Positions 12,938-63,212 of a stretch of DNA of 64,000 nucleotides are shown in pieces. A program made the position numbers and the translations under genes. The stretch is taken from IMG/VR virus record IMGVR_UViG_3300010883_000022, positions 1-64,000 of that record. One strand, given 5' to 3'. Below the pieces are notes generated by a model. That model was not told the origin of the DNA. It was given only the letters and a program-made list of their open reading frames with translations, and searched no databases. Within the stretch, counting starts at the first letter, position 1. Each line of letters starts with the position of its first letter. The DNA is from a virus.

Positions 12938-12954
12938 TCTCTTTGCTCCTATAT

Positions 12955-12994
12955 AAAAAACAGGCTGGTACACACGTAGTATACCAGCCTGTTT
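12955..12994 (-). terminator. Rho-independent terminator after capsid genes
   Basis: Inverted repeat AACAGGCTGGTA / TACCAGCCTGTT (12 bp) with an 11-base interior, followed on the minus strand by TTTTTTAT. This is a classic intrinsic terminator placed after the capsid-module gene ending at 13022. The next gene's ribosome site lies just downstream with no room for a promoter, so read-through must supply the glycosyltransferase and tail genes, or a promoter overlaps the hairpin. Confidence 0.85.
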
Positions 12995-37400: not shown

Positions 37401-38943
37401 CCATATGCGGAACCTCGTAATCAACCGCGTGAGGAGACACGTGCCGAACAGTGCCGCCAGACATGGCAGCTACCCGTGATTTACCCGATCGCAGCTCTCC
37501 TGGAAAAGCCACAACAGAAGACGTAATAGTCTCCGGGTCTCGCCACACCGTTTCACCGCTGCGAACATCTCGCATCTTTGTGTAAATCTTACCGTCCCGT
37601 CCTTTACGCGCATTACCCGCCATACGAAGATCGACGCCCGCACGCTCTGACTCAGGGGTTATGATCGGATCAATGAAACCAAAGTGGCTGGACTGAACAT
37701 TCCGCGCTTCCGCGGGCACACCACGTGCGCTCTGAATGCCGCCATCGCCCATCTTTGAAACACGGCTTTGCTGCTCAAAGATTTGCGCAGGATTGATCCC
37801 TTCCAACGGCTGCGCCAGAGAACCAAACAACACCGAATCCAGGCTCTTATTCATCAAGCCCGTACCAATACTCTGCACGTTTTTCTTAGATGTGGCTTTC
37901 CAAAGTGCGCGGTTAAGCAAACCTTTATTCTTGCCAATACGCTCTGCAAGCAAATCCTCAGGACCCAAAAAACGCATGAACGCCAAGGAGTCCCGATCAT
38001 CAACCTCGGCCGGGTCTAATCCCAATTTAGCTAGTACAGCTGGATCCGCTCTATTCTGAATAGCCAATAGCTTCCGAGTACTAGCAAGTAAACTTTCAAC
38101 AGTTACTCGCTTAGTTGGTTTACCCAGCGTCCGCTCTGTTGTTGCGGGATCCAACTCCATCTTTGCAAATGCCTTAGCAATTGCTTCCTGGCGAGATCGC
38201 GCGTCCGTATCAACACCGCCGAGAACAAACTTCTTATAGATCTTCGCCAAGTCCGCTGGAGACGCCTTTTGCATATTCGCCGAGGCGAGCTCGCCCCAAG
38301 CTGTCTGTAGTTCCTTATCCGTCGCGCCCATTGCGCGGAGAATAGAAATCAAGGGGATATTCGCGTTACCTACGTTCGCCTTAAAAAGGCCCGTTGCGGG
38401 GTCCAAATGGATACGATGCGATAAACCCGTACCAGGCTTTACGTTTATGCTGGATTCAAGCTCGCCGTTTTCTTTTTCCCGATGATAAACTCCGGGTCGC
38501 AGTCGCATTTGATTAGACAACGTATACTCATTGCCGTTGCGGATAAACGTGCCGCGGCTAGAAAAGTAAGGCACCTGCGCAACCGTTGCGCGCTTATTAT
38601 CAAGCACCGTCCCGGAAGCATTATCAACTAGCTGCCAAGTACCGCGTAAACTACGGCGCAGGTTACGTTGCTCCAAAAGCGCGCGTTTTTGATCAGCGAG
38701 AGAAATTTCCTTCTCATCGTCGTCGTAATCTACGTCAACAAGTTGTAACGTATGCGTCTGGTTAGAAACTGGTTCAATCGCGCGCGCAGCTGCTCGCACA
38801 TTTTCATAAATGCCGCGCCGCACCGCCGCAGAATCCCCAAATTCTCGAAGGCCTGCGGGCGCACGAGAGGAAGGCGCCAACGGCTTCGCGGGTGGTGTCA
38901 CCAACGACGGGGGCGGATTGCGGGGATCAAGTACACTTGGCAT
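34489..38943 (-). CDS. RNA polymerase beta fused to N-terminal half of beta'
   Basis: 1484 residues. About 1-1040 are beta: NFEDAVVISESFANRLSS (near 667), GDKLSGRYGDKGVISEI (801-817), then GTGRSFGGYTSEGRPS and GAKTIGMLELNALLSHGA. About 1050-1484 are the front of beta': GGLFDPSATGGHGGNKWSF, WMLSRAPVLPPAFRPISV, NRAPVLHRYGVMAFWPQL and the catalytic NADFDGD at 1391-1397 (34753-34773). It stops about 90 residues later, just before the bridge-helix half, which is a separate gene. The zinc-finger cysteines of the beta' N-terminus are absent. Together the two chains should form a complete catalytic core. No alpha, omega or sigma subunit is seen here. Confidence 0.95.
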   Translation of the reverse strand: MPSVLDPRNPPPSLVTPPAKPLAPSSRAPAGLREFGDSAAVRRGIYENVRAAARAIEPVSNQTHTLQLVDVDYDDDEKEISLADQKRALLEQRNLRRSLRGTWQLVDNASGTVLDNKRATVAQVPYFSSRGTFIRNGNEYTLSNQMRLRPGVYHREKENGELESSINVKPGTGLSHRIHLDPATGLFKANVGNANIPLISILRAMGATDKELQTAWGELASANMQKASPADLAKIYKKFVLGGVDTDARSRQEAIAKAFAKMELDPATTERTLGKPTKRVTVESLLASTRKLLAIQNRADPAVLAKLGLDPAEVDDRDSLAFMRFLGPEDLLAERIGKNKGLLNRALWKATSKKNVQSIGTGLMNKSLDSVLFGSLAQPLEGINPAQIFEQQSRVSKMGDGGIQSARGVPAEARNVQSSHFGFIDPIITPESERAGVDLRMAGNARKGRDGKIYTKMRDVRSGETVWRDPETITSSVVAFPGELRSGKSRVAAMSGGTVRHVSPHAVDYEVPHMEGAFSFLANMIPMKSATKAQRSVMAARMLTQALPLDNAEAPLVQAGIPGEDDSFENRYGTKMGAVRAKHGGVVTKVDKDEITVKYGNGAVETIELYDNYPYNRKTYIHQDVVVQKGQRFPKGALLAKSNFVDDKGTTALGLNARVAYVPFRGLNFEDAVVISESFANRLSSQHMYKTTVDFSEEKVRTSKAGFTAMFPGKFDRTTLEKMDNDGVIKPGTTVNSGDPLALVVRERERTANQVSRGRAPKYIDKTQMWSHHAPGIVTDVAKTKHGILVTVKSTATAKVGDKLSGRYGDKGVISEIIPDEEMPVAADGRSSELLLNPLGIISRTNPAQMIEAALGKIAERTGKPYKIQDFENIEDLTEFAMRELEANDIQDLETITDPTNGRQINDVFVGNRFFMKLHHVAESKGTGRSFGGYTSEGRPSKGGEEGAKTIGMLELNALLSHGATEVIRDAKMIRGQMNPDYWSAFQAGFKPATPKVPMVYEKFVNQLRAAGINPVRKGTRTHLLAMTEADVTKLAGDREITGSNTVDWKQGLKPLKGGLFDPSATGGHGGNKWSFIRLAEPMPNPAMQEPIMRVLGLTESNFRDILSGKQEFQGQTGSRAIAHALDKINLKQATAQAREDVKSSKGEKRNAAVKRLRYFKGAEKQKLHPRDWMLSRAPVLPPAFRPISVMQGSGNQLVSDTNYLYRDLFEANKFLRENAKKSDDIGEERLSVYDAFKAVTGLGDPISSDAQEKQVRGILREVFGKNPKYSVVQRKLLSNTTDLVGRAAITPNPDLDMDQVGIPEEKAWEVYQPLIIRDLGRRGIPKLDAARAVKDRSAVARKELLKIMSKRPVVINRAPVLHRYGVMAFWPQLVKNDTMQVSPLIVGGFNADFDGDAMQYHVPVSSSAVDEAINKLMPSRNLFSARDFNVHYKPSQEYTGGLYAASTKKNRKGPRTFSSKAEAIRAYRRGEIDAGQQVTILNG

Positions 38944-38958
38944 TTAATGGCCTCAAAT

Positions 38959-40056
38959 TCAGACGGACGCCGAAATGGGCTCGTCTTCTTTTTCTTCATG
39001 CAAAACCTCCGCACCCGGAGTGAGGTAAATCGGCTGAGGGCGTCGGCGAGCTAAATCAGCTTTGCGTCGACGCATTGCTTCACTTAGCGGGCTCTTGCTG
39101 CGCGATTTGTTACGCGTCCAGTTATACGCCATCATTCCTGTAGGTATTCCAGAAATTGCAGCCATCATAGTGAGCAATCCCCCATACTGCTTAAGGCCCT
39201 TAGTGATGTCTCCGGTGGTAACATTTTCTAGACCACCAAGATTAGGCTGCGGAAACTCGATTCTTGGTACCTCCGCCAGCTTAACAAAACCAGCGTACAG
39301 TTCGTCCAACGACGAGCCTAATACGGAAGCTTCCTTACTCGCCTCAAATTGCTCTGCAATAGCCGTTTCATATTCGTCTTTGGCATCTCGTACAGCTTCT
39401 TCCCGCAACCGCTTTCTACGGCGCGAAGCAAGGTAATCACCCAGAGCATTTCCGCCCCAAAAACCACCCAAGCCTAAGCCAACCATCGCGGGCCATTTGG
39501 CTATGGGAGCCGAATCACTGCCCAACCACGAGGTCTCGGCCTCTAGCTTGTTCGCTTCATTATATGGGCTCGCTGATTGCTGTGCGGCTTTATCCAGCCG
39601 ATCTTCTTCATCCTCTTCCGGTTTCCGCCGACTAACAAATTTACGTTGCGGTACCGAAAGCTCCATGGGCAGGGAAGATGTGCCAGCTCCCGCCATTTGC
39701 GCCACACTCGGACGCCTTAAGGCTTTGACTAACGAAGCTCCGCCGCCAAGCAACGCCGCCCCGCCGCCCACCGCAAGAAGCTGCATCAGGTTTTTGTTGT
39801 ACAGCAACTCTGGGTCGCTCAGGATAGTCGACGGAGTCGTCTCGTAAAGCAGACTAGATTCTTTGCGCATATCCTGCGCGTGCTTAATCAAGTCCGGAGC
39901 AATGTCGATGTAAAGGCGCTCGTTTGCAAAAGAGCCCCCCGTCGCCTCGGACTGCTTGCGCATATCCTGCGCATGCTTGATCAAATCCGGAGCAATATCA
40001 ATGTAAAGGCGCTCATCATCGATTGAGGCGGACTGTTTGTGTATTTGTTTCTGCAT
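38959..40056 (-). CDS. Glycine-zipper membrane protein with duplicated leader
   Basis: 365 residues. Residues 14-65 contain two copies of a 31-residue unit whose core is ERLYIDIAPDLIKHAQDMRK. Hydrophobic Gly-rich segments follow at about 88-108 (LMQLLAVGGGAALLGGG), 185-205 (MVGLGLGGFWGGNALGDYL) and 288-310 (LLTMMAAISGIPTGMMAYNW). Between them are highly charged regions, including RRRKRLREE. FVKLAEVP and RLDKAAQQ are further K-x-A sequences. The start overlaps the upstream gene by 41 bases and has a GGGG site. Likely a virion protein that enters the membrane during DNA ejection; inference. Confidence 0.7.
   Translation of the reverse strand: MQKQIHKQSASIDDERLYIDIAPDLIKHAQDMRKQSEATGGSFANERLYIDIAPDLIKHAQDMRKESSLLYETTPSTILSDPELLYNKNLMQLLAVGGGAALLGGGASLVKALRRPSVAQMAGAGTSSLPMELSVPQRKFVSRRKPEEDEEDRLDKAAQQSASPYNEANKLEAETSWLGSDSAPIAKWPAMVGLGLGGFWGGNALGDYLASRRRKRLREEAVRDAKDEYETAIAEQFEASKEASVLGSSLDELYAGFVKLAEVPRIEFPQPNLGGLENVTTGDITKGLKQYGGLLTMMAAISGIPTGMMAYNWTRNKSRSKSPLSEAMRRRKADLARRRPQPIYLTPGAEVLHEEKEDEPISASV
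39865..40015 (-). repeat. 93-bp period direct repeat duplicating an N-terminal leader
   Basis: Two copies of about 58 bases, beginning at 39865 and 39958, differing at a few third-codon positions. Both encode the ERLYIDIAPDLIKHAQDMRK core. Silent differences show that the amino acid sequence is being kept. Confidence 0.85.
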
Positions 40057-43946: not shown

Positions 43947-44888
43947 TTAACCCCACAACGAACCGCCATAATCAGGCAGTTTACGCGGTGGGAAACCATC
44001 TACACTAGAAAAGACCCACGTACCCCGAGCCTTAATCATTTGTTCAACAGTACGCTTCTTCACCCAAAAACTACCTTCAGGCTGGTCAAAAGAGCGGGGG
44101 CCGCCGTTCCAATGCCCCCAACTATTCTGCACCAATATCCCAGGACCGCCACTTTGTTTCGTGTCGTTGCAAGCAATGAAGGTCATTGCGTGGTTCCACC
44201 CGCCCTTCAATTTAGCGTACCCGTCGGCATCCCGCCGAGACGAGAACCCGATACCACTACAGACTGTCATCGCGTAGCCATTAGCAAGCGCGTCCCTGGC
44301 CTCTTCCCAGGATGTCACCAGAGAAACAGTGCGCACCTGATGCTTCTGCCCCTCCGTACTAACTTCCGAAGGAACACCCCTGCGCCCCCACTTATCCCCA
44401 GTAGCGCTGTCGTATACCGAGAAATCAACAAACCCATAGTCTTTGCGCAGAAGGATGCCGCCCTCATCATGCACAAATCGCGCCGCCGCTGAACAGGACA
44501 TGCCCTGCCCGCCGTGGCCTCGCGCACCATAAATAGCCTCAGTGGCGCCCCTGCAGATAAACTCCTCGGGCTCGTTATCAACATCGATCTCTACAGCACG
44601 AGTAACATCAACCGCATTACGCGTTGCGTGGCTTACACAATCACCGGTTGTCTGGCTTTCTGCGGGGCCAAACCCCGCATCAAACTTTACTAAGGATTTG
44701 AACGGTAAAGAGATCTTTCCTTTGCCACTTTCTTCAAGTGCGTGCGCTGCAGCGCCAAAAACAGGATGCGGAAGCTCACCAAGCAATCGAGCCACATCCT
44801 CAGGATTGCACTTAGAACCAACAAAACCTTCGGAATAAGCCTTCCAAAGATTGCGCGGCGTCGGATTTACAGGAAATTCTAAAGACAT
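43947..44888 (-). CDS. Papain-like cysteine protease (C1A type)
   Basis: 313 residues. The catalytic set of papain-like enzymes is visible: Gln79 and Cys84 in QTTGDCVSH, His233 in GGWNHAMTF, and Asn255 in QNSWGHW. There is no signal peptide and no long propeptide, so it may be active in the cytoplasm or packaged. The segment KKRTVEQMIKARGTWVFSSV near the end is also typical. This family is uncommon in phages. It may process virion or host proteins. It sits between the small envelope-type genes and the glycan genes. Confidence 0.9.
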   Translation of the reverse strand: MSLEFPVNPTPRNLWKAYSEGFVGSKCNPEDVARLLGELPHPVFGAAAHALEESGKGKISLPFKSLVKFDAGFGPAESQTTGDCVSHATRNAVDVTRAVEIDVDNEPEEFICRGATEAIYGARGHGGQGMSCSAAARFVHDEGGILLRKDYGFVDFSVYDSATGDKWGRRGVPSEVSTEGQKHQVRTVSLVTSWEEARDALANGYAMTVCSGIGFSSRRDADGYAKLKGGWNHAMTFIACNDTKQSGGPGILVQNSWGHWNGGPRSFDQPEGSFWVKKRTVEQMIKARGTWVFSSVDGFPPRKLPDYGGSLWG

Positions 44889-44907: not shown

Positions 44908-45378
44908 TTACTTTACCACGTCTATAGTCATATTCTGAACATTACTAGTAACCCGCGTAACCCGGGTTACTCCCATACGAAAAAGAGTTGCTTCAAGCCA
45001 GGGAAAACTCAGGGAAATATGATGAAAATTGCCGGGATAATCCTGCCCCCCGTTAATGATCTTTGACAATCTTTCCCAACTTATCTCACCTGACTTTGCT
45101 TGATGAAAATACGTCGTACATATCTTCTCTATATCCGGAGTCTTGATAAGCAAACGGCCGCCCGGTCGTAAAACTCGCAGCCACTCGGCTAATGCTTTCT
45201 CATACTCATAAATACTGAAATGCTCAATAATGTCGAGCGCTACAACTTCATCCACACTCTCGTCAGCATAATCCAGATTCCGCACATCTCCGCGCACAAC
45301 ACCGGGAATGTCCCGCTCATCTATGTTGATATACCCTTCCTTGATGTCAGGGCCGCAGCCCACGTTAAGCTTAAGCAT
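44908..45378 (-). CDS. SAM-dependent methyltransferase
   Basis: 156 residues, a compact class I methyltransferase. Motif I is LNVGCGPDIKEGYINID; SVDEVVALDIIEHF is motif II and LRVLRPGGRLLIKTP is motif III. Length is short for the class, ending after the seventh strand. Similar small enzymes accompany glycan synthesis genes. The substrate may be a sugar or nucleotide sugar; this is inference from the cluster. Confidence 0.85.
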   Translation of the reverse strand: MLKLNVGCGPDIKEGYINIDERDIPGVVRGDVRNLDYADESVDEVVALDIIEHFSIYEYEKALAEWLRVLRPGGRLLIKTPDIEKICTTYFHQAKSGEISWERLSKIINGGQDYPGNFHHISLSFPWLEATLFRMGVTRVTRVTSNVQNMTIDVVK

Positions 45379-45380
45379 GC

Positions 45381-46040
45381 TTACAATCCCCCCAAGTACT
45401 GATCTCCGGGGATCTCCTTATGCGGTTGCCAGGTGCTATCGCCCCGTCTCCAACCTATATGTAACGTAGTTCCCGGCAAAACGTAAAAAGAAAAAGCGCT
45501 ATCAAGACGAGCCATAGCCCCGATAATGTGCCAATCATATTGCTGATTTCGCGGTAGTGGGCGTAATTTCTGCCAATCTTCAGTGCGCATCACAGCTGTA
45601 CCAGCAGTGCATTTCTTCTTAATGATCCACTCACGACCATGCACTGTAGTGCGCCCGACCTCTGCATGGTCTGTACTGTTATGACCTTTAGCTAGAAAAC
45701 ACGATGGGTTCTCTTTGAGCATTCTGATGTAAGTGCTAAGCGGCTCTAAATACATGAAATCATGGTCGGTAGTAAGGATGTACTTATACAACTCATCGAC
45801 GTTATCAGGGATGGCGTCTTGATACCCGCCGCCAATATTTCTATTGGTGTCGAAAAGGGTTTTCTCCACACCTTCTATGTTATTGATAACAGAAACTGTC
45901 TCAGCATTTGATCCGTTATCAATAATATGAATGTCTGCCGTAATAACATCCTCAGCAATGCGCGCCTTTAATGACTCCACCGTCTGCACTAGAAAGTCCG
46001 GGCGATTCCAGGAGATGACGTAGATACCTAAATCCTTCAC
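45381..46040 (-). CDS. GT2-like glycosyltransferase, short
   Basis: 219 residues from a GTG at 46040 that overlaps the upstream stop (GTGA). The N-terminus IYVISWNRPDFLVQTVESLK and DIHIIDNGSNAETV are typical of GT-A enzymes; LTTDHDFMYLEPL supplies the metal-binding acidic residues. The C-terminal acceptor region includes WHIIGAMARLDSAFSFYVLP. It follows the formyltransferase gene, so it may transfer the formamido sugar. This is inference. Confidence 0.83.
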   Translation of the reverse strand: MKDLGIYVISWNRPDFLVQTVESLKARIAEDVITADIHIIDNGSNAETVSVINNIEGVEKTLFDTNRNIGGGYQDAIPDNVDELYKYILTTDHDFMYLEPLSTYIRMLKENPSCFLAKGHNSTDHAEVGRTTVHGREWIIKKKCTAGTAVMRTEDWQKLRPLPRNQQYDWHIIGAMARLDSAFSFYVLPGTTLHIGWRRGDSTWQPHKEIPGDQYLGGL

Positions 46041-46624
46041 GGTAAAGTCCTATCCACCAAGTGAGCTTGAAACGCTTCAAACCGCTCACAAAGTTCAAAA
46101 GGACCCCTATGATACATGCGCGGTGGATACGCATAACAATTACTAATCTGATCATCTGCCAACAATCGCACTAGCTCTATACTACTGTGAACAAACCCCG
46201 GAAGGATGCAACTAAGCCGCCCATACAGATCAAACGAGGTATCAGCTGCGAAGACAGGGTAGGTCGTCTTACTAATGATGGGGCCTGCGTCAAAATTCTC
46301 CACCATCTTGTGAAAAGTGATGCCCTGCTCCCTATCCCCGTTAACAAGCGTGTGCGCCAAGATATCCAGGCCCCCATAATCAGGAAGAAGGCCGGTGTGC
46401 ACGTTGTACGCGTTCTCGATGTCAACCAGTTTGCGATCCCACTGAATTGACAACTTGATGTCGTGCTCAACATCAAAACTATCTAATACAGGTAACGAGA
46501 TGTTCCCCGGGAATGCCGGACTTCTAGACGGGACATAGCCCACCAAGTTATAGAAGCCCGCGAGGTGCTCAACCACAAGTTCGGTGAGATAAGATGATCC
46601 CAGGATGATTATTTTGTAATCCAT
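46037..46624 (-). CDS. Sugar N-formyltransferase-like protein
   Basis: Start at the ATG at 46624 (MDYKIIILGSSYLTELV) with GGAG at 7 bases. Product 195 residues. The catalytic triad of the formyltransferase fold is present: Asn74 and His76 in NVHTGLLPDYGG, and Asp112 in ENFDAGPI, with the usual spacing. GITFHKMVENFDAGPIIS is a strong family match. It lacks the C-terminal OB domain of methionyl-tRNA formyltransferase. With the adjacent aminotransferase this fits N-formylation of an amino sugar, using N10-formyltetrahydrofolate. Confidence 0.88.
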   Translation of the reverse strand: MDYKIIILGSSYLTELVVEHLAGFYNLVGYVPSRSPAFPGNISLPVLDSFDVEHDIKLSIQWDRKLVDIENAYNVHTGLLPDYGGLDILAHTLVNGDREQGITFHKMVENFDAGPIISKTTYPVFAADTSFDLYGRLSCILPGFVHSSIELVRLLADDQISNCYAYPPRMYHRGPFELCERFEAFQAHLVDRTLP

Positions 46625-46640
46625 TACTAACTCCACGCAA

Positions 46641-47765
46641 CTACCAACCCTCTTTTATACAGTCAACGATATGCTGACGATCCTCGTCGCTTACCCACCA
46701 ACCACAAGGAATACAAATCATGTCCTGACTAAGTATATCCATACTTGGCAGCGCCGCACGAAACTCTTTAAGACAATGATGCTTATCGTTTCGATCGTGC
46801 ACCTGACTAACACCAATGCCGCACCCCTTCATCTTTTTAACGAAGCCCGGACGGCCGCTCACGCGCAGTGTATACACCCAGTACGATGATGACCTATCTG
46901 AACTAGTTTCCAGCAGCTGAACACCAGGAGTACCAGCCAACTGCTCATCGAAAAACTGCCCGTTACTGCGATGATGTGCCACCAACTCAGAAACATGCGG
47001 AAAGTTACACAAACCAATAGAGGCGTTCACATCATTCATATGATACTTGAACCCCCACTCCTCGATATTCTGCTCGCAGCGGAAATCAAGGCTTCGAGTC
47101 CTATCCAACCCGTACCACCGCAACCTTTTTGCGCGCTGATGCTCTTCATAGCTCGGTGACACAAGTAAGCCACCGTCTACCGTCGTGAAGTGCTTGATAG
47201 CCTGGAAGCTGAAGCAGCACGCATTCCCATGATTGCCCAGCAGCTTATCCTTGTACGTTGCGCCCCACGCATGTGCACAGTCTTCTATGACTGTAGGATA
47301 AAACCCGTAAAGATCCTGACAACGAATCTGCAGTTCCTTAAGTGCATCCAAATCACAGGGGTACCCACCCCAGTGCACAACCATGATAGCCTTGGTCTTA
47401 GGACTCAGCTTCCTAGCCAAATCATTTAAACACATATTACAAGTGCCCGGATCAACGTCGACCCAGCGAAGGCGCGCCCCTGTTGCAAGGATCGCAAAGT
47501 TGGTGGCTGTGCAGGTCAACGGAGTAGTTAGCACCTCGTCGTCCGGCCCCAGGTCACACATGTGCGCAGCAAGCGTTAACGCCGATGTGCCGCTGTTAAG
47601 CGTATTCAAATACGGCGTACCCAGGTAATCAGACAACGTAACTTCAAACTCTTCTACCCGAGGCCCCTGCCCAATATATCCGGACAAAAGCGTATCAGAG
47701 ACTGCGCTCGAAACGTCCTCCGACATAAAAACTTTGAACAAGGGAATATTCTTTTCCGACGCCAC
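46641..47765 (-). CDS. DegT/DnrJ/EryC1-type sugar aminotransferase
   Basis: 374 residues from a GTG at 47765 preceded by GGGAGGGG. PLP-binding signs: LNSGTSALTLAAHM near 56-69, IEDCAHAWGA (Asp162), and FSFQAIKHFTTVDGG with Lys191 as the Schiff-base lysine. The start IPLFKVFMSEDVSSAVSDTL is also typical. These enzymes convert a keto sugar nucleotide to an amino sugar with glutamate or glutamine. Paired with the formyltransferase it would make a formamido sugar. The dehydratase that supplies the keto sugar is not in the window and may come from the host. Confidence 0.92.
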   Translation of the reverse strand: MASEKNIPLFKVFMSEDVSSAVSDTLLSGYIGQGPRVEEFEVTLSDYLGTPYLNTLNSGTSALTLAAHMCDLGPDDEVLTTPLTCTATNFAILATGARLRWVDVDPGTCNMCLNDLARKLSPKTKAIMVVHWGGYPCDLDALKELQIRCQDLYGFYPTVIEDCAHAWGATYKDKLLGNHGNACCFSFQAIKHFTTVDGGLLVSPSYEEHQRAKRLRWYGLDRTRSLDFRCEQNIEEWGFKYHMNDVNASIGLCNFPHVSELVAHHRSNGQFFDEQLAGTPGVQLLETSSDRSSSYWVYTLRVSGRPGFVKKMKGCGIGVSQVHDRNDKHHCLKEFRAALPSMDILSQDMICIPCGWWVSDEDRQHIVDCIKEGW

Positions 47766-47767
47766 AA

Positions 47768-48655
47768 CTACGCCCCTCCCAAGATATGAAAACCACCGGA
47801 ATCCCGCTCACAAGTAGATGCCGGCGCAAGTCCCAACAACTGCCCGCGTTCAAGTTGAACCTGATGACCCATGATTGCGCCTATGGGTAATTCAGCCGGA
47901 GCAAACACAAGTGGGCGCGGTATAAGAGAGTTATCCAAGTAGATAATGTTCTTCTCAGCCGTTGTCGGATTCCTCGTACAATGCATAAAAGAAATACAAT
48001 AATCAGCAGACATGCTGCGGATACTCAGTCCTTTATTAGCAAAAGATCTTAAGTATCCCACCTGTGTCGCCGGGCCCTCCCGCATAACATCTGGCGGTAG
48101 ATGGAAAGAACCACCGTACTTGTTAAATAGGTCAACGTTAATAAGCCCAATAGAGCAAGCAGCATGCGGTCCCCACTTAGAAGGATCCAACCAATGTCCA
48201 ACACAGATTAAAACTGATTCCTTATCTACATCAGTTGAATAGCTGTAGGACAACCATTCCTTGTCAAAGCCACGCATGACTGGAAGATAGTCATCTTCAA
48301 AAAGAAATGCGAAGTTAATACCTTCACAATGTTGCTGAAGCGCGAGATTCCACCCACCGTAAGACCAGTGCGCGGGATTTTGCTTACTAAAAACAACGGT
48401 CGGGATGCCCGTTTCCTGCTCAAAAGCAGCAGCCTTATCCTCCAAGAGAAGGAAGTGCTCTTCGTGGCCCGGGTCTAGACTGCAAACAAGGACTACCTTG
48501 TCCAGACAAGTGGCATATCTACGAAGAGCCTCGAGATACGTATCCGCGTGGCAACGTGCATGACTGTGATTAACACGATTGTGCGCGCCATCATATGACT
48601 CTGGCCTACCAAAATAGACCGCACAAATATACGCCACACGGTTTCCTTGCCACAT
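47768..48655 (-). CDS. Putative glycosyltransferase
   Basis: 295 residues. YICAVYFGRPESYDGAHN at the start and FAFLFEDDYLPVMRGFD (an acidic metal-binding set) are GT-A-like. AHWSYGGWNLALQQHCEGIN fits the region before the metal site. No signal or membrane segment. Belongs to the glycan cluster by place. The sugar and acceptor are unknown. Confidence 0.75.
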   Translation of the reverse strand: MWQGNRVAYICAVYFGRPESYDGAHNRVNHSHARCHADTYLEALRRYATCLDKVVLVCSLDPGHEEHFLLLEDKAAAFEQETGIPTVVFSKQNPAHWSYGGWNLALQQHCEGINFAFLFEDDYLPVMRGFDKEWLSYSYSTDVDKESVLICVGHWLDPSKWGPHAACSIGLINVDLFNKYGGSFHLPPDVMREGPATQVGYLRSFANKGLSIRSMSADYCISFMHCTRNPTTAEKNIIYLDNSLIPRPLVFAPAELPIGAIMGHQVQLERGQLLGLAPASTCERDSGGFHILGGA

Positions 48656-48657
48656 AC

Positions 48658-49143
48658 TTAAGGGGCTCCATTTTTAATACTCCACGCAATTGCGCGAAAT
48701 ATGTTAACAGCTGCCGCCCGCTTCTCCGCAGACAGCTGAACATCTTCGAGCCCCAAATGCTCCTCGAGAACCGCGTCCTTTACTGCACCGAACCCAGGGT
48801 ACTTACCAACAAGTTCCGTACGCTGCAACATCAGCTTCTCTGCCCGCATAAAGCCTTCTCGGATCGTGCCGGTTGTCTTTATGATATCAGTGTCACGATC
48901 GATGACGTCCGCAAAGTCGGCATAAAACTGCGCAGTGTCAGCGGCATCTACGGGATCAGAAATAAGACCCCGTAAAGCTTTCGTGGCCTCTTTAAGCTCT
49001 GCAGTCGGCTCAGCTATTTCCGTACGATAGTGCCCATCATGCAAAGCCGGGGGCGGATCAGGCTCCGAGTTCCTGGGAAACAAACAACCCGGGCACGTCA
49101 AAACAACCAACAACAATAACGACATAGTATTGCGTAGCATCAT
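48658..49143 (-). CDS. Putative lipoprotein, possible outer-membrane spanin
   Basis: 161 residues beginning with a lipoprotein signal (MSLLLLVVLTCPGCLFPR) whose Cys20 could be lipidated. The mature part is Pro-rich and then helical (LMLQRTELVGKYPGFGAVKD). Its start overlaps the stop of the upstream two-membrane-segment gene. A holin-like gene is nearby. The pair could be lysis spanins, but the lipoprotein is longer than most and the idea rests on arrangement. Confidence 0.6.
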   Translation of the reverse strand: MMLRNTMSLLLLVVLTCPGCLFPRNSEPDPPPALHDGHYRTEIAEPTAELKEATKALRGLISDPVDAADTAQFYADFADVIDRDTDIIKTTGTIREGFMRAEKLMLQRTELVGKYPGFGAVKDAVLEEHLGLEDVQLSAEKRAAAVNIFRAIAWSIKNGAP

Positions 49144-51031: not shown

Positions 51032-52015
51032 TTACTTCCTATCCACGGGAAGTGGAACAAGCTCTAGTTTCGGAGAGCTAGGCTTCATGTTGATAGTCCT
51101 AATCCTATACGGAAACTTCATGGGAGTAAGTGTAATTCCCTTACTTCCATCTTTACCGCCCACAAAGTTAGTACCCACGTCCTCGATCGGCATGGCCTTC
51201 AACTTTTCTTCTGACGGCATCTTAACCGCGGGATCCAGCGCCCAAGAAACACCGGCACGCGCTGCCCAGTCACGCATACGACGCGCAGGAACAATAAGAT
51301 TGAACCCCTCGCCAGCGCCTCGGACCAACATCCCGACGTAACGACCATCTTCCAGGTAGACACCCCCACCACTTGAGCCAGGAAATGCCGTTACCGTAGT
51401 CTGGTCGTAAACCGTCTTGCCGATAAGTCTGCCATGTTGACTCATTATGCCTGTCGTCATGGAATTGCTTCCCTGCTGACCGAGTAACGAGCCTACGTGA
51501 AGGAGGCGAGTGCCCAGCGTAGGAATAGACTTATCCAGGTAAAAACGCGCGGTCGTCTTGATGAAGCCCTTCTTACGAACACGCAAGAGAGCCAGGTCCT
51601 CGCCGTGGTCAGCATTTGAATAACGGATCACTTCCGCATCCATTTCAAGCCGCCCAACAGTGCGCCCCTCGTCAATCAACGTCTTGACGACTTTAGCGTC
51701 CTTAAACTCCACAACAGTGCGCGGAGTACCTGTCTTAGGGTCAACAACTGAACGAGTAGTGCGCAAGCCATCGACTACGTGCGCTGCTGTCCAGATATAG
51801 GTGATATTATCACGATTAAACGCAACACCCGAGCCCTCAGAGCGGTCAGCGCGAATCGTGACTGAGATATCCTGTAGATAATCAGGAATACCGTCCGTAG
51901 CCTCGACTTCTGCCGCGCTGGCAATACAACAACTACCAGGAATAGACGGAAGAAGTGTGGCCGATAAGCCAATAGCTAAAAAAAATGCCAATACAGTTGA
52001 TTTGAGAAAGTTCAT
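51032..52015 (-). CDS. Secreted trypsin-like serine protease
   Basis: 327 residues. An N-terminal signal (STVLAFFLAIGLSATLLP) ends near SAAEV. The chymotrypsin-fold triad is visible: His79 in TAAHVVDG, Asp140 in HGEDLALLR, and Ser215 in FPGSSGGGVYL. No PDZ domain is seen; the C-terminal 90 residues are unrecognised. The signal peptide predicts a periplasmic or extracellular location. A phage protease in the envelope could degrade host proteins or mature an exported phage protein. Preceded by the ParB-like gene. Confidence 0.88.
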   Translation of the reverse strand: MNFLKSTVLAFFLAIGLSATLLPSIPGSCCIASAAEVEATDGIPDYLQDISVTIRADRSEGSGVAFNRDNITYIWTAAHVVDGLRTTRSVVDPKTGTPRTVVEFKDAKVVKTLIDEGRTVGRLEMDAEVIRYSNADHGEDLALLRVRKKGFIKTTARFYLDKSIPTLGTRLLHVGSLLGQQGSNSMTTGIMSQHGRLIGKTVYDQTTVTAFPGSSGGGVYLEDGRYVGMLVRGAGEGFNLIVPARRMRDWAARAGVSWALDPAVKMPSEEKLKAMPIEDVGTNFVGGKDGSKGITLTPMKFPYRIRTINMKPSSPKLELVPLPVDRK

Positions 52016-52046: not shown

Positions 52047-53135
52047 TTACGTAGTTCGAGCAGGCTTTCCTTGCCGCCATCTCATCGCATTAGCCCACTC
52101 ATCCATATTAGGTTGTTCTGCATGAACAGCAAACCTATTAGACGACGACGGAGCATCCGGTACCGAATACTGCATCCCAGATGGTTTATGCAACCAAGTA
52201 GACTCATTGCCTGTACTAGAGTGTAACTCAAATTCATGCGGATTACGACGCATGACATCATAGAACACACCCCCCATACCCTGATCCCACGATGCACCAG
52301 GGCCTCCTTGTGGATTATACCCCGCATTAAAGTTCGGCTGACCGACTGGGCCAGATGTCTGCTCGCCCCACGGGGAATCTACTGCTGCTGTAGGCTGGTT
52401 TTGCGCTGCAGCGCCCCAAGCACGGTTGCGCGAGTCTACGCCCTCTCGGTGCGCGATCGCAGCCTGTATGTTCCTAAACTGTGTAGCGTGATCTCTTTCC
52501 TCTCCCTTGCGCTTCATCCCACGCCCTGCCCAACTCTTAAGCGTAGAACCAACATCACCCTTCCAGAAAGAACCCTCGCTTGGGCGTGTAAGCGCTGTGT
52601 TAGGTAACTCATTAGCCCACTCGCCTACACTCTCATATTCCCCGAAGAAGCCCTCGGCGGGCGTGTTGGCTGTGAACGAGCGCATAGTGGGATTACCGCG
52701 CGGAGTAAAAACCCCGCCCTGGAGGGCCGCCGCCCTCTTAAGCAACCCAGGAAGATCAAGGATGATGTCGCGATCCAGAGCCTGCTTCACTGCTTCAATA
52801 TCTTCTGGTAAAGCAGTTACAGCTTGAACCTCTTCTTCCCCCTCGTCTTGTAACTTAGCAACACGATGGCGCCCATCCCACAGAGTACCCGCTTCATCAA
52901 CGATGACCGGAAACTTTGTGTCAGCATCTGCATAACGCTTCTTTTGAAACCCAGTGTTACGAGAGCGATTAATCTTGGGGAGCGAGATCTTGCGTGCCTC
53001 TCTGTCCTTGAGCCGCTCTATAAGCGCAAGTATGTCATACGACGTATCTCCACGTGTGGTTGTATGCGTGCGTGTATGCCCAGCCTGCTTAAGCAACCCA
53101 GGAAGATCGAGGATGATATCGCGTTCTATACTCAT
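52047..53135 (-). CDS. ParB-like domain protein with duplicated leader
   Basis: 362 residues, starting at an ATG that overlaps the upstream stop (ATGA). ERDIILDLPGLLKQAG at the N-terminus is repeated as DRDIILDLPGLLKRA near residue 120. Between them is a ParB/sulfiredoxin-like segment (FPVIVDEAGTLWDGRHRVAK), whose GRHR resembles the ParB nucleotide-binding motif. The C-terminal 200 residues are Gly/Pro/Asn-rich, with no recognised domain. The repeated leader resembles the one in the glycine-zipper protein at 39.0 kb. The domain could bind DNA or CTP; presence in virions is a guess based on the leader. Confidence 0.72.
   Translation of the reverse strand: MSIERDIILDLPGLLKQAGHTRTHTTTRGDTSYDILALIERLKDREARKISLPKINRSRNTGFQKKRYADADTKFPVIVDEAGTLWDGRHRVAKLQDEGEEEVQAVTALPEDIEAVKQALDRDIILDLPGLLKRAAALQGGVFTPRGNPTMRSFTANTPAEGFFGEYESVGEWANELPNTALTRPSEGSFWKGDVGSTLKSWAGRGMKRKGEERDHATQFRNIQAAIAHREGVDSRNRAWGAAAQNQPTAAVDSPWGEQTSGPVGQPNFNAGYNPQGGPGASWDQGMGGVFYDVMRRNPHEFELHSSTGNESTWLHKPSGMQYSVPDAPSSSNRFAVHAEQPNMDEWANAMRWRQGKPARTT
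52738..53123 (-). repeat. 35-bp direct repeat around ParB-like domain
   Basis: Copies at 52738-52772 and 53089-53123, identical except at about two bases, 351 bp apart (117 codons, in frame). They encode RDIILDLPGLLK. The layout suggests that two genes with the same leader became joined, or that a domain was inserted behind a copied leader. Confidence 0.88.
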
Positions 53136-53325: not shown

Positions 53326-54042
53326 CTACCACTCGATCCACCTAATATCTTCCTTTATAGAAAGTGCGCCCGGCTTGCTATACATGGGCCGGTAGTACGT
53401 GCAATCCGGGGCATAATAGTGCGTTACCTGACTATACCTTGTTGCGCCTTCACGAGTTATCTTAGTTCCGCCGTGTAGAAAATTAGAAGCCCAGATAAAC
53501 GCCTGACCTTTGGAGCATGTAAATACCTTTGCTTCAAGATTCTCCCGCGCAATCACGCTTGCCATATAAGCCTCGTACTCTTTACAGGGCTTGCGCGCTT
53601 CTATTGGGGGTGGCACTACACCTACATCACTCATCACATACTCTGGCAACCGGTGGCTGCCTGGATAATAGAACAACGGACCCTGATCTTCTTTAACATC
53701 CTCCAGAGCAACCCAAACGCCACACATGCGGCCAGCAGGAATAGTATTGAAATGAATTGTGTCACTGTGGGCAGGCTGCTCTGTCCCATACTTGAAGTTC
53801 ATTGCCTGCCAAGGCTTCATCGGAAAGTCGTACAGCGCCTCAAGCGTTTTAAGAATCCGCGGAGCCAATACAATTTGCTTCACACAGTTGTAAATATGCA
53901 CCAAATCATACATTCGCTTTGATTTAGAAGAAAAAGCAGAAGAAGTTACCTCGCGCGCCTCATCTAGCCAGTGCTCATCAATTTGCGGATCAAATACAAG
54001 ATACCCATCACGGTCAAACCGTTGTTTTTCCGTCAACTCCAT
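53326..54042 (-). CDS. PhyH-type Fe(II)/2-oxoglutarate dioxygenase
   Basis: 238 residues. The iron triad is visible: His92 and Asp94 in PAHSDTIHF and His190 in ASNFLHGGTKI, with Arg202 as a possible 2-oxoglutarate ligand. The N-terminus RFDRDGYLVFDPQIDEHWLD is typical of the phytanoyl-CoA dioxygenase family. These enzymes hydroxylate small molecules. Its place next to glycosyltransferase genes could mean modification of a sugar or lipid, but the substrate cannot be told. Confidence 0.9.
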   Translation of the reverse strand: MELTEKQRFDRDGYLVFDPQIDEHWLDEAREVTSSAFSSKSKRMYDLVHIYNCVKQIVLAPRILKTLEALYDFPMKPWQAMNFKYGTEQPAHSDTIHFNTIPAGRMCGVWVALEDVKEDQGPLFYYPGSHRLPEYVMSDVGVVPPPIEARKPCKEYEAYMASVIARENLEAKVFTCSKGQAFIWASNFLHGGTKITREGATRYSQVTHYYAPDCTYYRPMYSKPGALSIKEDIRWIEW

Positions 54043-54514
54043 TACTTGCCACTCCTTGTGCGCCTGAAAGCTTCACAAACGCGTCTTCTATGTCCGAACA
54101 ACTGGAATACCACTCATTTCGAATATGGTACTGCTTAAATTTGCTATGTAACGCACGTTCCAGCGAGCGGCTGCCCACCACAAAGTACAATAAGCGCAAA
54201 GGATGCGCATTTGCCGTCGATAAAGTGCGCAAACGGCGTTTTGGATTTGATGATAAGCCAATTTTAACCTCATCGGCCTGGTTGGCCATGAGATACACAT
54301 ATGTCTTAACTGTGCGCCGAGGAAGCGGCCGCCTTCGCAACAAACCAGCCACCGCCTCATACATTTCACGGTGATGCCGCGACTCTTGCACCTGAAAAAG
54401 AGCCACAAGCGCATCGTACTCCGCTAAAAGCGCCACATCTTCCTTCTTTATAAGCTCCGCGAACCTTCCACGAAGCTTATCCGCACGTACAGCGTAATTC
54501 CGTTCACGTTCCAT
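54014..54514 (-). CDS. T5orf172/GIY-YIG-like domain protein
   Basis: 166 residues. The N-terminal 70 are helical and charged. Residues about 70-140 match the T5orf172 (MUG113) type of GIY-YIG fold: YVYLMANQADEVKIGLSSNP, then RRLRTLSTANAHPLRLLYFV, RALHSKFKQYHIRNEWY. Such proteins are common in phages and are thought to act on DNA, but their role is not well known. Overlaps the dioxygenase gene by 29 bases. Confidence 0.82.
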   Translation of the reverse strand: MERERNYAVRADKLRGRFAELIKKEDVALLAEYDALVALFQVQESRHHREMYEAVAGLLRRRPLPRRTVKTYVYLMANQADEVKIGLSSNPKRRLRTLSTANAHPLRLLYFVVGSRSLERALHSKFKQYHIRNEWYSSCSDIEDAFVKLSGAQGVASNGVDGKTTV

Positions 54515-54540
54515 AGTCTTCCCTGACTAGTACAACTGCG

Positions 54541-55485
54541 TTACCGCTTAAGCTTATACAATTCTACATCCATTAATCGTGAATAGGGCTGATTTTTACT
54601 CTTTAAACGACACTTCAACTCCGGAACGAACGCAAGCATATGGGTATCTTCTTCATCGTTGAGATTATTATCCCTAAAATGCCGCTCAAACCAATCATCG
54701 TCGTCATGCACACCGGAAGAAAGCCTGCCTCGTGCTCTGATCTTATGCCGAAACTCCTCTTCGGACCGCGTTGCGTAGTGATTAACGCGAAAAACGTCCC
54801 AAGAGGCCCGGGGAGTACCTGCATACGTGAGAAACGGCGCCGTCTGCGTCTCCGGAGTAAGGCAAATACCATGCGCATCCACAAAAGGATACTCCGCGCC
54901 AACGTCATCACACCCAGCCCGCCACATATGCGGATCTAATGACTTCACAACACAAAGTGGATTAATAATGGGCTTCACATGCCTATTTTTCGTGTTATCA
55001 ATTTTGCCTCGCCTCGTATAGTTCTCAATGACAAGCCCCGCGGGAGGGGTCACATGCCCATTCGTACCAAACATAGCCCAGTTGAGCACAACACCGGCAA
55101 TCTCTCCCTGCTGCGCCAGAAAGTCGCTCAGTGTCACATCTGACATTTGCGCCAAGAACTCATCTGAATCAATAACAACAATCCAGTTTGCCACACCACG
55201 TAATCGTTTTAGTGCGTGGTCATATGCTGTTACCTGTGGATACGGCCCGCCCCCGCCTGGAGCGTATCTTCTACGTGGAAAATTCCACTCCACCAGCGTA
55301 ACCTGTTTGTTCTTAATATACGGGGCCAGCACCTCCTTGTAATTATCTTGGCTCATGTGGCTATACAAGAAGAAATGCTCAATGCCGAGCATTAGATGGT
55401 ACTCAAGCCACTCGTCAAGGATGTGCGCTTCATCCCTAAATATCATGCAAGCAGCGATATCAAAAGTCGTCGTATTTTTCGTCAT
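54541..55485 (-). CDS. GT92/GT2-like glycosyltransferase
   Basis: 314 residues. ACMIFRDEAHILDEWLEYHL, then GIEHFFLYSHMSQDNYKEVL, is the hallmark N-terminus of GT92-type (DUF23-like) transferases. VIDSDEFLA is the metal-binding DxD. The C-terminal part HYATRSEEEFRHKIRARGRL fits the acceptor region. Overlaps the upstream zinc-ribbon gene by 26 bases. Sugar unknown. Confidence 0.87.
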   Translation of the reverse strand: MTKNTTTFDIAACMIFRDEAHILDEWLEYHLMLGIEHFFLYSHMSQDNYKEVLAPYIKNKQVTLVEWNFPRRRYAPGGGGPYPQVTAYDHALKRLRGVANWIVVIDSDEFLAQMSDVTLSDFLAQQGEIAGVVLNWAMFGTNGHVTPPAGLVIENYTRRGKIDNTKNRHVKPIINPLCVVKSLDPHMWRAGCDDVGAEYPFVDAHGICLTPETQTAPFLTYAGTPRASWDVFRVNHYATRSEEEFRHKIRARGRLSSGVHDDDDWFERHFRDNNLNDEEDTHMLAFVPELKCRLKSKNQPYSRLMDVELYKLKR

Positions 55486-55753
55486 CCGGCCCTTCCATCT
55501 CGTCCATTCCCTTTGGCAACTTCACGTCATACTCTACACCACACTTGGGACATTGTACGTTACCAGGCACCACCATGAAGAACGTATTGTCGCTATCATG
55601 TGCGCCCATCTCCGGCGGAACTTCGCCCTCGTTCTCCTCTAGAAAATCATCGAACGGCAACGGAGGCTGCGGAAATGCACCAAAGAACGATCGACGGCAC
55701 CTGGGACAGTGCCAAGAGAACGCCCATTCGAGTTGTACAGTGGGACCAGCCAT
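55460..55753 (-). CDS. Zinc-ribbon protein
   Basis: 97 residues. Two Cys pairs, CPRC (near 16-19) and CPKC (near 68-71), form a plausible zinc ribbon with a long acidic insert (DDFLEENEGEVPPEMGAHD). The start overlaps the upstream stop as TAATG. Could bind nucleic acid or protein. Unrecognised beyond the ribbon. Confidence 0.7.
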   Translation of the reverse strand: MAGPTVQLEWAFSWHCPRCRRSFFGAFPQPPLPFDDFLEENEGEVPPEMGAHDSDNTFFMVVPGNVQCPKCGVEYDVKLPKGMDEMEGPDDEKYDDF

Positions 55754-57708
55754 TAAGCGTCCTTTTTCTCTACCGGTAGTTCATCAACAACTTCTAATGA
55801 TAAGGACTCAAGTACCATTTCACACGGGCCTACGTGAGGATCAAAACGTAATGCAGTTAGGGGATCGTCGGTGAAGAAGTGCGCCACATGCCGAGAAGAC
55901 ACCGAGTTTCCCTCTATCTCTAAACGGCAAGATTCGGGGGGCTTCTTTCCACCTAGACCTGCCGTCGTCTCCCAATAAAAATACGCCATAACGTCTGCAG
56001 CAGACTTACAAACAATTACTACCCGTTTCCACCCTGCCGGGGCGGACACAGAAACACTCATTTGCGGATCCGCTCCCGCGCCAACGATTTTTACACCGTT
56101 AGGAAGATTGCTAAGACGTATGCCAAGCAAGCTCTTCCAAGAATCCCAGTCTTCTTCAGTTTTCCAATCCTTTACAACGGAATAAAATGGCGCACCTATA
56201 TGCCAACACTCCATATCCCAATCCACCTTAACTATCTGCCTAAAAACATACGGGCCCCGTTCTTTCGCTAATTCTATGAGGTGATCGAAAAACGCTCTCT
56301 CGTAATCCTGGTTGCCAGCGGCTAGATCCAACTCCCAGCCGGGCCGAATTACGCGCAGTGTCGCCTCGTCAGGTACGTCAACAAATACAGATTGCTTCAA
56401 GCACTCCCGCCGCACGACAACACAACCAAAACCACCAGTTGCTGGGACCTCTACCACGCCGATCCCGGCACGATCCCGCCCCTTTCCTCGATTGCTACGA
56501 TCGTGGACCACGTTAAAAAAATTGGCCGCGCGTTGATATCTAGATCTATGCGGCGCACTGACTAGTGCGACATGCGGACCCATGGATCGCAATAATTGTT
56601 CACAGACCTCTGGTACCGGCGGACGAATGTCATCCTCAAGGATCCAACAGTATGGCGTTACTAATATGCTAGATAAATAACAGTACATTTGCCGCATAGC
56701 TGCACGAACTTGCGCCTGCGTCTGTACACGGTCGTGGTCCGCTAAATTCGGCGGGCCCACCACATAACGAAGTAGTCGAACATCAGCGTAATCACAATCG
56801 GACACCCACGTGCGCACCGTTTCATGAAACGCGTCCGATTGACTTGTATCCATTAATACCAATTGGATTTGATCATGCGGCCAGGTTTGCTTCTCCAAAA
56901 ACTCCGCTAAAGACGGCCACTGTTCACTGCGCCCAGAAAGCGGAATAAACAATGTAATAGTTTCTGCAACCAAGTTGGCCAAATCAAAATAATGTTGCTC
57001 GTGATACGTTTGCGCTGCCAAGTTACCAGCACCCTCCCTCCAACACTTATTCGACGGGGGAACGTGCTTTTGTAGGCGGAGGCGCTTGGCAGATCCTTCA
57101 TGCTCTCGGTACTGATAAAGAGCGGGTTGTTTTACAGCCTGCCAGTAATAACGCAAAACCCGCCGCCACATATACCAATCATCGTGAGAGTTAAGCTCAA
57201 TCCGCACATTCCAAGCATCTGCATCCATTAACGCCGCACGCAATACGAGAGAGGCCGCGTGGATGTAGTTTACCCTCTGCAATAATTCACGATCGAACTG
57301 CTCGGGATACTTCTTATAAGCATCCGAAGCTCCAAAAGATTGCATGTCTGAGTAAACAACAGCAACATGCGGATCATTAAAGCAGGGCAACCCTGCAGAT
57401 AAGTAATCTACAGGGAGGCGGTCGTCTGCGTCTAAAAAACACAACACCGCCTGTTCAGTAATCTCTGCGCCAATGCGCCGGTTTTCTTGCACGTTGCCCG
57501 TCGCAACTCGGTGGTACCTAACCCCACGATCGGCGAATACCTTTGCTACTTCCGGCGTATCGTCTGTGCTCGCGTCATCGATTACGACTATCTCCTTCGC
57601 CGGCCGTGTTTGCATCAAAACACTAGTGATAGCTTCCGCCAGATACCTACCGTAATTGTGGCAGATAATCACAACCGATACGTCAAGCACGTCACTACGA
57701 ACACTCAT
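55753..57708 (-). CDS. Tandem glycosyltransferase with C-terminal beta domain
   Basis: 651 residues, coupled to the upstream gene by TAATG. Residues about 9-220 are a GT2 domain: VSVVIICHNYGRYLAEAITS, VVIDDASTDDTPE and FLDADDRLP. Residues about 245-500 are a second GT-A-like domain (ITLFIPLSGRSEQWPSLAEF, WILEDDIRPP). Residues about 540-651 look like a beta-sandwich (VSVSAPAGWKRVVIVCKSAA, MVLESLSLEVVDEL). Two active domains in one chain suggest sequential sugar additions. Acceptor unknown. Confidence 0.88.
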   Translation of the reverse strand: MSVRSDVLDVSVVIICHNYGRYLAEAITSVLMQTRPAKEIVVIDDASTDDTPEVAKVFADRGVRYHRVATGNVQENRRIGAEITEQAVLCFLDADDRLPVDYLSAGLPCFNDPHVAVVYSDMQSFGASDAYKKYPEQFDRELLQRVNYIHAASLVLRAALMDADAWNVRIELNSHDDWYMWRRVLRYYWQAVKQPALYQYREHEGSAKRLRLQKHVPPSNKCWREGAGNLAAQTYHEQHYFDLANLVAETITLFIPLSGRSEQWPSLAEFLEKQTWPHDQIQLVLMDTSQSDAFHETVRTWVSDCDYADVRLLRYVVGPPNLADHDRVQTQAQVRAAMRQMYCYLSSILVTPYCWILEDDIRPPVPEVCEQLLRSMGPHVALVSAPHRSRYQRAANFFNVVHDRSNRGKGRDRAGIGVVEVPATGGFGCVVVRRECLKQSVFVDVPDEATLRVIRPGWELDLAAGNQDYERAFFDHLIELAKERGPYVFRQIVKVDWDMECWHIGAPFYSVVKDWKTEEDWDSWKSLLGIRLSNLPNGVKIVGAGADPQMSVSVSAPAGWKRVVIVCKSAADVMAYFYWETTAGLGGKKPPESCRLEIEGNSVSSRHVAHFFTDDPLTALRFDPHVGPCEMVLESLSLEVVDELPVEKKDA

Positions 57709-62384: not shown

Positions 62385-63212
62385 TCAACGATACTCTGGG
62401 TGCCCGTCTGAGGAAAACTCAGAACGTATGTCACATCCGGAACTTGTAAATTGTAATGCAGCGCCCGTCTTTAACGTGTGTGCCATCGCAGAAAAGCTGC
62501 TGAACTCACTTCCAATAATATGATCTGTGCGCGCAAGCAAGTACAAATCTGCAAGTGCCTTTTGCATAGACTCCTTCGAATGCCATTCGTAAGGATTTTG
62601 TTGGTGGTGAAATGCGCGTCCCGGAAAATGCTCTGCAAGCAACGACACAACCCGCTCCTCCTCAGCAGATACAAACACCTCTGCCTGCGGAAATCGCTGG
62701 AAATACGCTGAGAGATTATCGATAAAGCTGTCAACTGATGAACGCTTACTCGTTACCGGGTGGGCCCGTATGGTGCGTATAGACACGCCGACAATCTGCT
62801 CTGCTTCGTCAATGGTTGGTAACAAGTTATCTATTAAAGCCTGCACAGGTTCGCTTGGGGTAAACTGCTTGGCGTACTGCCCAATACCCTCTATCAATGC
62901 TGTGCAGAAAAAGAAATACGAAGATACCTTTACGCGGTGCGCTTCTCCCGGAGACTCCTCCCACGGCACAGTCAAAGGCCCCAATGCGTGCCAATCTTCT
63001 GCAGAAACTTGCGCCCAATTATTGGACCACAAATCACTAAACGATGCTTGCGGGCTTAAGAACCCCCCTGAAAACTTAGCAGTACCCTTCTCAGGCGGCC
63101 AACAAACTACAAGGCGCCGATCGTCCCGCTGACATATAGCCAACGCAGAGCAAAGTGCGCGCCACCTGTTACATAGCCCGGCATGCGCATAAACCCACAG
63201 CTCTCGTTGCAT
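62385..63212 (-). CDS. Fucosyltransferase-like glycosyltransferase
   Basis: 275 residues; its start overlaps the upstream stop (TAATG). GLCNRWRALCSALAICQRDD near residue 12 resembles the GxxNR start of GT-B fucosyltransferases (NodZ/GT23/GT11-like). IVGVSIRTIRAHPV holds the HxR-like part, and LLARTDHIIGSEFSSFSAMA near the end is the typical donor-site segment. It probably transfers fucose or a related sugar from a GDP-sugar. Part of the glycan cluster. Confidence 0.82.
   Translation of the reverse strand: MQRELWVYAHAGLCNRWRALCSALAICQRDDRRLVVCWPPEKGTAKFSGGFLSPQASFSDLWSNNWAQVSAEDWHALGPLTVPWEESPGEAHRVKVSSYFFFCTALIEGIGQYAKQFTPSEPVQALIDNLLPTIDEAEQIVGVSIRTIRAHPVTSKRSSVDSFIDNLSAYFQRFPQAEVFVSAEEERVVSLLAEHFPGRAFHHQQNPYEWHSKESMQKALADLYLLARTDHIIGSEFSSFSAMAHTLKTGAALQFTSSGCDIRSEFSSDGHPEYR

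What the first reader, a model, noticed from the sequence alone, without database searches (positions are those of the whole stretch)
44908..48655. Aminotransferase plus N-formyltransferase: a formamido-sugar pathway in a phage
A DegT-type aminotransferase and a formyltransferase with Asn74, His76, Asp112 are adjacent, followed by a glycosyltransferase and a methyltransferase. Together they could make and attach an N-formyl amino sugar as in some bacterial O-antigens. Such a pair in a phage is unusual.
Basis: partly seen in the sequence, partly recalled or inferred. Interest (0 to 1): 0.72.

Follow-up and report, generated by a model that had tools for sequence, protein, structure and literature searches.

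The report
Phage operon making formylated amino sugar
A large phage carries a small operon that probably adds an amino group to a host sugar, caps it with a formyl group and attaches it to something; the capping enzyme belongs to a compact family that turns up next to amino-sugar enzymes in many other uncultured phages.

Summary
In detail: five tightly packed minus-strand genes (GT-A-like, DegT aminotransferase AT, Formyl_trans_N formyltransferase FT, GT2, methyltransferase) lie in a genuine phage (capsid and fused RNA-polymerase homologues of Salmonella phage Arash). The FT triad Asn/His/Asp is real (78/80/116 from the GTG start). The FT is short (199 aa), divergent and misses every NCBIfam cut-off. 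A profile found the same compact FT in 23 other viral records (16 clusters at 90% identity). 19 of 23 also encode a DegT aminotransferase, 16 within 1.5 kb, 7 directly upstream in the window's order; the four misses end within 1 kb downstream of the FT. FT-linked aminotransferases are scattered over the AT tree (one clade rejected), so the pairing recurred. In the window AT's two closest relatives the FT slot holds a GNAT acetyltransferase, suggesting an acetyl-to-formyl swap. Formylation of the AT's amino sugar is thus well supported; exact sugar and acceptor are unknown. The record has no dehydratase, so the keto-sugar must come from the host or unseen phage genes. The pair is not unique to this phage, but I found no published phage sugar N-formyltransferase. 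New variant of a known kind.

The parts
47768..48655 (-). GTx, 295-aa GT-A-like glycosyltransferase (FEDDY motif after a strand)
   Evidence: No Pfam/PHROG/NCBIfam hit. Low-confidence model (pLDDT 56.5) matches GT-A/nucleotidyltransferase folds, best mannosylglycerate synthase, E=1.3e-6, TM 0.41. Distant homologues (21-25%) lie beside AT relatives in L014, L049 and L053; GNAT-fused in L049 and L053.
46641..47765 (-). AT, DegT/DnrJ/EryC1-type PLP sugar aminotransferase; K191 as probable PLP lysine
   Evidence: Pfam E=1.5e-74; PDB best 4zwv/4xau 418 bits, then CalS13 4zas 357 bits; K191 invariant in 17 aligned sequences.
46037..46636 (-). FT, compact formyltransferase, N78/H80/D116 (GTG start; ATG at codon 5 gives 74/76/112)
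   Evidence: Formyl_trans_N 54.6 bits; 23 viral loci with relatives at 46-59%; triad invariant in 24 of 24; model pLDDT 72.2 matches Fmt, ArnA, WlaRD, WbkC folds.
45381..46040 (-). GT2, family-2 glycosyltransferase, overlaps FT by 4 nt
   Evidence: Glycos_transf_2 28.1 bits; no convincing PDB relative.
44908..45378 (-). MT, SAM-dependent methyltransferase
   Evidence: Methyltransf_11 44.9 bits.

Best explanation
The operon makes and uses an N-formylated amino sugar. AT transfers an amino group to a nucleotide-linked keto-sugar supplied by the host (or by phage genes outside the 65-kb record). FT moves a formyl group from the host's 10-formyl-tetrahydrofolate onto that amine, doing the job that a GNAT acetyltransferase does in sister loci. 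GTx and/or GT2 transfer the formamido-sugar in the cytoplasm, and MT methylates the glycan. Supported by sequence and gene order: the AT and FT enzyme classes and their coupling. Inference only: exact sugar (a 4-amino-pentose or 4-amino-6-deoxyhexose is my guess), order of the later steps, and acceptor. I think a phage-made protein such as a virion protein most likely, because the five enzymes look soluble and the record has many other glycan genes among virion genes.
For: Operon packing. FT family: 19 of 23 viral records also hold DegT; on the loci 16 of 23 have an AT-profile ORF within 1.5 kb and 7 of 23 directly upstream (gap -19 to +3 nt); all 4 misses have under 1 kb of sequence downstream of FT. 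FT-linked ATs are not one clade (16 of 63 rows, dlnL 413, p-AU 1.7e-7), so the pairing is not just one inherited block. Sister ATs L002 and L021 (60%, 58%; grouped with the window, SH-aLRT 96) have GNAT genes directly downstream. In L119 the FT is followed by a dTDP-glucose 4,6-dehydratase-like gene (TIGR01181 245.8 bits, below its 365.1 cut-off); in L125 by an RmlC-type isomerase and then AT. Sugar FTs rank first in the profile search of PDB. Closest solved ATs include CalS13; AtmS13 is postulated to aminate C-4 of a TDP-keto-pentose (PMC10951976, passage).
Against: Margins over Fmt and PurN are small (48 vs 42 and 37 bits), and Foldseek ranks an Fmt first. All NCBIfam equivalog cut-offs are missed. 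0 of 26 other AT-bearing viral records of the first scan carry Formyl_trans_N, and none of 49 AT-bearing cellular genomes gave more than a partial match to the compact FT profile. No PF01370 or PF16363 sugar dehydratase/epimerase in the record. Many viral contigs are fragments. No biochemistry.
Confidence: 0.72

Rival explanations
1. Same sugar chemistry, but the product is put on the host cell surface (O-antigen, capsule or teichoic acid) to block superinfection, as proposed for cyanophage sugar clusters.
For: PMC7824862 (passages) proposes this for jumbo-phage sugar clusters; N-formyl sugars are known in O-antigens (PMC10924466 and PMC5981137, search listing with abstract starts).
Against: No hydrophobic stretch over 1.62 (19-aa Kyte-Doolittle mean) in 11 examined window proteins, so no clear integral membrane enzyme or flippase among them. 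The record is probably only a part of the genome.
Confidence: 0.25
2. The sugar or its derivative decorates phage DNA as a hypermodified base against host nucleases.
For: Large phages use glycosyltransferases and amino groups for DNA modification (recalled); PhyH-type oxygenase at 53326-54042.
Against: None of the 30 window ORFs that I scanned in one or more libraries had as its family a known DNA-base modification enzyme such as a TET/JBP or thymidylate-synthase homologue (only weak DNA-methyltransferase matches of the two methyltransferases); many window ORFs were not scanned; PhyH is not a DNA-oxygenase family as far as I recall.
Confidence: 0.07
3. FT is not a sugar enzyme but a purine (PurN-like) or tRNA (Fmt-like) formyltransferase that happens to sit in the operon, as PurN-type genes do in cyanophages.
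For: The PHROG match is a cyanophage PurN-like family, E=4.4e-14; Foldseek rank 1 is an Fmt; cyanophages carry such genes among replication genes.
Against: Misses PurN (39.3 vs 150.1) and Fmt (49.2 vs 201.5) cut-offs. The cyanophage genes in the two annotated regions read sit without sugar genes, whereas 19 of 23 records of this FT family hold a DegT gene.
Confidence: 0.08

Closest known systems
Bacterial sugar N-formyltransferases (ArnA N-domain, WlaRD, QdtF, WbkC, VioF)
   Same: Formyl_trans_N core, Asn-His-Asp triad, next to a DegT aminotransferase; best profile hits in PDB.
   Different: About 185-207 aa against 261-417 aa for the solved WbkC, WlaRD, QdtF and FdtF chains; shorter between the first strands and the NxH motif; misses ArnA, VioF-type, PurN and Fmt model cut-offs.
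AtmS13 / CalS13-type sugar aminotransferases
   Same: Closest solved relatives (418 and 357 bits; that 4zwv/4xau are AtmS13 is recalled).
   Different: Those serve actinobacterial antibiotic pathways; the keto-sugar used here is unknown.
Mimivirus UDP-viosamine pathway (R141, L136, L142)
   Same: Virus-coded aminotransferase plus N-acyl transferase making a capped amino sugar for virion fibres (PMC4691112, passages).
   Different: Acetyl instead of formyl; giant virus of amoebae with its own dehydratase.
Glycosylation gene clusters of large phages (cyanophages, Flavobacterium phage immuto)
   Same: Immuto carries a 48.6% AT relative among glycosyltransferase and methyltransferase genes.
   Different: No formyltransferase annotated in the immuto region read, and the words formyltransferase and aminotransferase do not occur in the main text of PMC7824862.

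Membership tests
Formyl_trans_N (PF00551) formyltransferases | Profile score over the curated cut-off | tested here: met
   54.6 vs 26.1 bits, over profile 105-169 only
Formyl_trans_N (PF00551) formyltransferases | Asn-x-His ... Asp catalytic triad | tested here: met
   N78/H80/D116 align with ArnA N102/H104/D140; 24 of 24 rows
Known sugar N-formyltransferase equivalogs (ArnA, dTDP-4-amino-4,6-dideoxyglucose FT) | NCBIfam equivalog cut-off | tested here: not met
   51.2 vs 777 and 34.7 vs 238 bits
PurN / Fmt | NCBIfam equivalog cut-off | tested here: not met
   39.3 vs 150.1 and 49.2 vs 201.5 bits
Sugar N-formyltransferase (function) | Formylates an NDP-amino sugar with 10-formyl-THF | not testable with these tools
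   needs an assay
DegT/DnrJ/EryC1/StrS sugar aminotransferases | Profile over cut-off and PLP lysine | tested here: met
   251.9 vs 19.8 bits; K191 invariant in 17 sequences; that it is the PLP lysine is inferred from its place in the SFQAIKH motif
ArnB / PseC / WecE / DesI equivalogs | NCBIfam cut-off | tested here: not met
   best PseC 206.5 vs 423.5 bits
Complete NDP-formamido-sugar pathway in one record | SDR dehydratase or decarboxylase | tested here: not met
   0 matches to PF01370 and PF16363 in G000; the record may be partial

The most novel reading that the evidence does not exclude
Phages own a distinct compact sugar N-formyltransferase family, seen so far only in viral records, that is shuffled between unrelated amino-sugar gene sets and swapped with acetyltransferases, so that phages vary the N-acyl cap of their virion glycans much as bacteria vary O-antigens.
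Probability: 0.35. Interest if true: 0.68.

Novelty: new variant of a known kind. Interest (0 to 1): 0.55.

Why it matters
N-formyl sugars are known from bacterial surface polysaccharides; a recurrent phage family for making them would add a new chemical group to phage glycobiology and tie virion or host-surface decoration to the host folate pool. The acetyl/formyl exchange in one gene slot is directly testable with purified enzymes.

Tried and rejected
FT single-protein scans of viral contigs and genome contigs and GTx and PhyH scans found no relative; only profile scans (A3, A4) did, so the first impression that the pair is unique (1 of 27 records with FT, window included) was wrong.

Annotated phage records with both AT and FT hits among the rows listed are OQ572407.1 (H3, H23) and OR851163.1 (H11, H30); 17 of 37 AT rows were not listed. 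In OQ572407.1 (UNVERIFIED) the FT is the start of a 662-aa ArnA-like ORF after a DegT gene, so I take it as bacterial arn-type sequence; OR851163.1 was not opened. The marine-virus hits H1/H2 are PurN-like by eye.

Shared ancestry of all FT-bearing phages: the window's fused RNA polymerase is absent from the 7 FT records tested (0 of 7; 0 of 16 other records in all).

Cellular source of FT: 0 of 299 genomes sampled from the phylum of G042 at E<=1e-20 (no positive control inside that call; Pseudomonadota is read from the title of L040); 14 of 49 AT-bearing genomes gave only partial matches, best E=1.8e-14, in frames of 277-886 aa. Other phyla were not sampled, so 'virus only' is not shown.

A dioxygenase-like ORF family (alignment A6) near FT: by-eye HxD...H...R motif, no Pfam (L119:5367-5984, L121:6584-7222, L125:5334-5999) and no PDB match, so its function is unproven.

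The first AT tree had long misleading branches; for the clade tests I dropped L051, L031, L057, L020, L016, L032 (also L022), thinned the cellular rows and left L148, L151, L152 and L154 out of the FT-linked ATs (near copy, short or weak AT). The FT group was named after seeing a first tree.

Full report
What is there. The minus strand at 48655-44908 holds five ORFs packed with gaps of 2, 4, -4 and 2 nt: a 295-aa GT-A-like protein, a DegT aminotransferase (AT), a Formyl_trans_N protein (FT), a GT2 glycosyltransferase and a methyltransferase. The next gene upstream (48658-49143) is also only 2 nt away, so the transcript may be longer. The host record is a virus record of 65,250 bases. It is a real phage: 34489-38943 is a fused beta/beta' RNA polymerase 31% identical to that of Salmonella phage Arash, and 13900-14829 is 30% identical to that phage's annotated major capsid protein, E=4e-35.

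The formyltransferase. It passes Pfam (54.6 against 26.1 bits) over the catalytic half only and fails the NCBIfam cut-offs of ArnA, Fmt, PurN and the dTDP-4-amino-4,6-dideoxyglucose enzyme. With seven relatives as a profile, PDB hits rank ArnA 48.2, WlaRD 45.8, QdtF 45.7, WbkC 43.6, Fmt 41.6 and PurN (3kcq) 37.1 bits (the names QdtF and WbkC for 4xcz and 5vys come from the titles). A model (pLDDT 72.2) matches formyltransferase folds, an Fmt and ArnA first (E=7e-9). The class is therefore clear; that it is a sugar enzyme rests on gene context more than on the sequence.

Context. Single-protein scans found no FT relative, and in a first set of 26 other viral records with related ATs none had Formyl_trans_N. 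A three-sequence profile then gave 7 close viral loci among 15 hits and the eight-sequence profile 23 loci, with the triad invariant in 24 of 24 rows and 17 clusters at 90% identity including the window. A DegT gene is present in 19 of 23 records. The four without it (G384, G030, G391, G392) have 2, 942, 194 and 25 nt downstream of FT; three of them cluster with records that do have it. 16 of 23 loci have an AT-profile ORF within 1.5 kb, 7 of 23 directly upstream as in the window. For comparison, 37 of 50,697 annotated phage records have any tblastn match to the window AT; this is a different collection, so only a rough yardstick.

Acyl swap. The two ATs closest to the window's, L002 (60%) and L021 (58%), have a GNAT acetyltransferase directly downstream, and the three form one group (SH-aLRT 96). 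L015 also has a GNAT there. In 28 records (window included) PF13302 is found in 6 and hexapeptide repeats (PF00132) in 6, together 11 different records, none of them the window; not all lie beside the AT. Two cellular loci, L049 and L053, have a GTx relative fused to a GNAT near the AT. So an N-acyl transferase is a frequent partner and formyl is the variant here.

Independence. Sixteen FT-linked ATs (window included) in a 63-row tree need 7 changes; one clade is rejected (dlnL 413, p-AU 1.7e-7; an earlier 57-row test with 5 FT rows gave dlnL 127.6, p-AU 3.8e-74). Either FT moved between AT lineages or was lost often; in both readings FT stays with ATs.

Which sugar. Two FT clusters show precursor genes next door: a dTDP-glucose 4,6-dehydratase-like gene in L119 and an RmlC-type gene in L125. 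Of the 8 records (window included) 5 have PF16363; the window's has none, nor PF01370. The window AT resembles CalS13-type enzymes, and AtmS13 is described as postulated to aminate C-4 of a TDP-keto-pentose (PMC10951976, passage). A 4-amino sugar is thus likely, its identity open.

Acceptor. None of 11 examined window proteins of this kind shows a clear membrane segment. Other glycan genes lie at 11597-12973, 53326-60233 and 62385-63212. I favour protein decoration; host-surface decoration is the main rival (PMC7824862, passages).

Literature. Searches (PMC open-licence papers only; listings and abstract starts, with passages read in PMC7824862, PMC10951976, PMC4691112 and PMC9723584) showed no phage sugar N-formyltransferase. 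Mimivirus makes acetylated viosamine (PMC4691112, passages), the nearest viral precedent that I saw. Subscription papers were not searched.

Noticed in passing
L139-L161, ORFs near FT (alignment A6): A conserved ~210-aa family with by-eye HxD...H...R pattern (2OG-Fe dioxygenase-like) lies in 13 of 23 FT loci; no Pfam or PDB match.
   Followed up: partly
53326-54042: PhyH-type dioxygenase with 31-36% relatives near the AT in six viral AT loci (L007-L010, L012, L026) and 33% in FT locus L154.
   Followed up: partly
34489-38943 and 30566-32440: Fused beta/beta' RNA polymerase and a second subunit, like Salmonella phage Arash and some Vibrio phages.
   Followed up: partly
52047-53135 and 38959-40056: Short motifs repeated inside one protein (DIILDLPGLLK twice; ERLYIDIAPDLIKHAQDMRK twice), perhaps processing or targeting signals.
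   Followed up: no
43947-44888 and 51032-52015: A papain-like protein by eye (no Pfam hit) and a Trypsin_2 protease flank the glycan genes.
   Followed up: no
55753-60233, 62385-63212, 54541-55485: Further glycan genes: large GT2-like, multi-domain methyltransferase, O-FucT-like (below cut-off), GT92.
   Followed up: no
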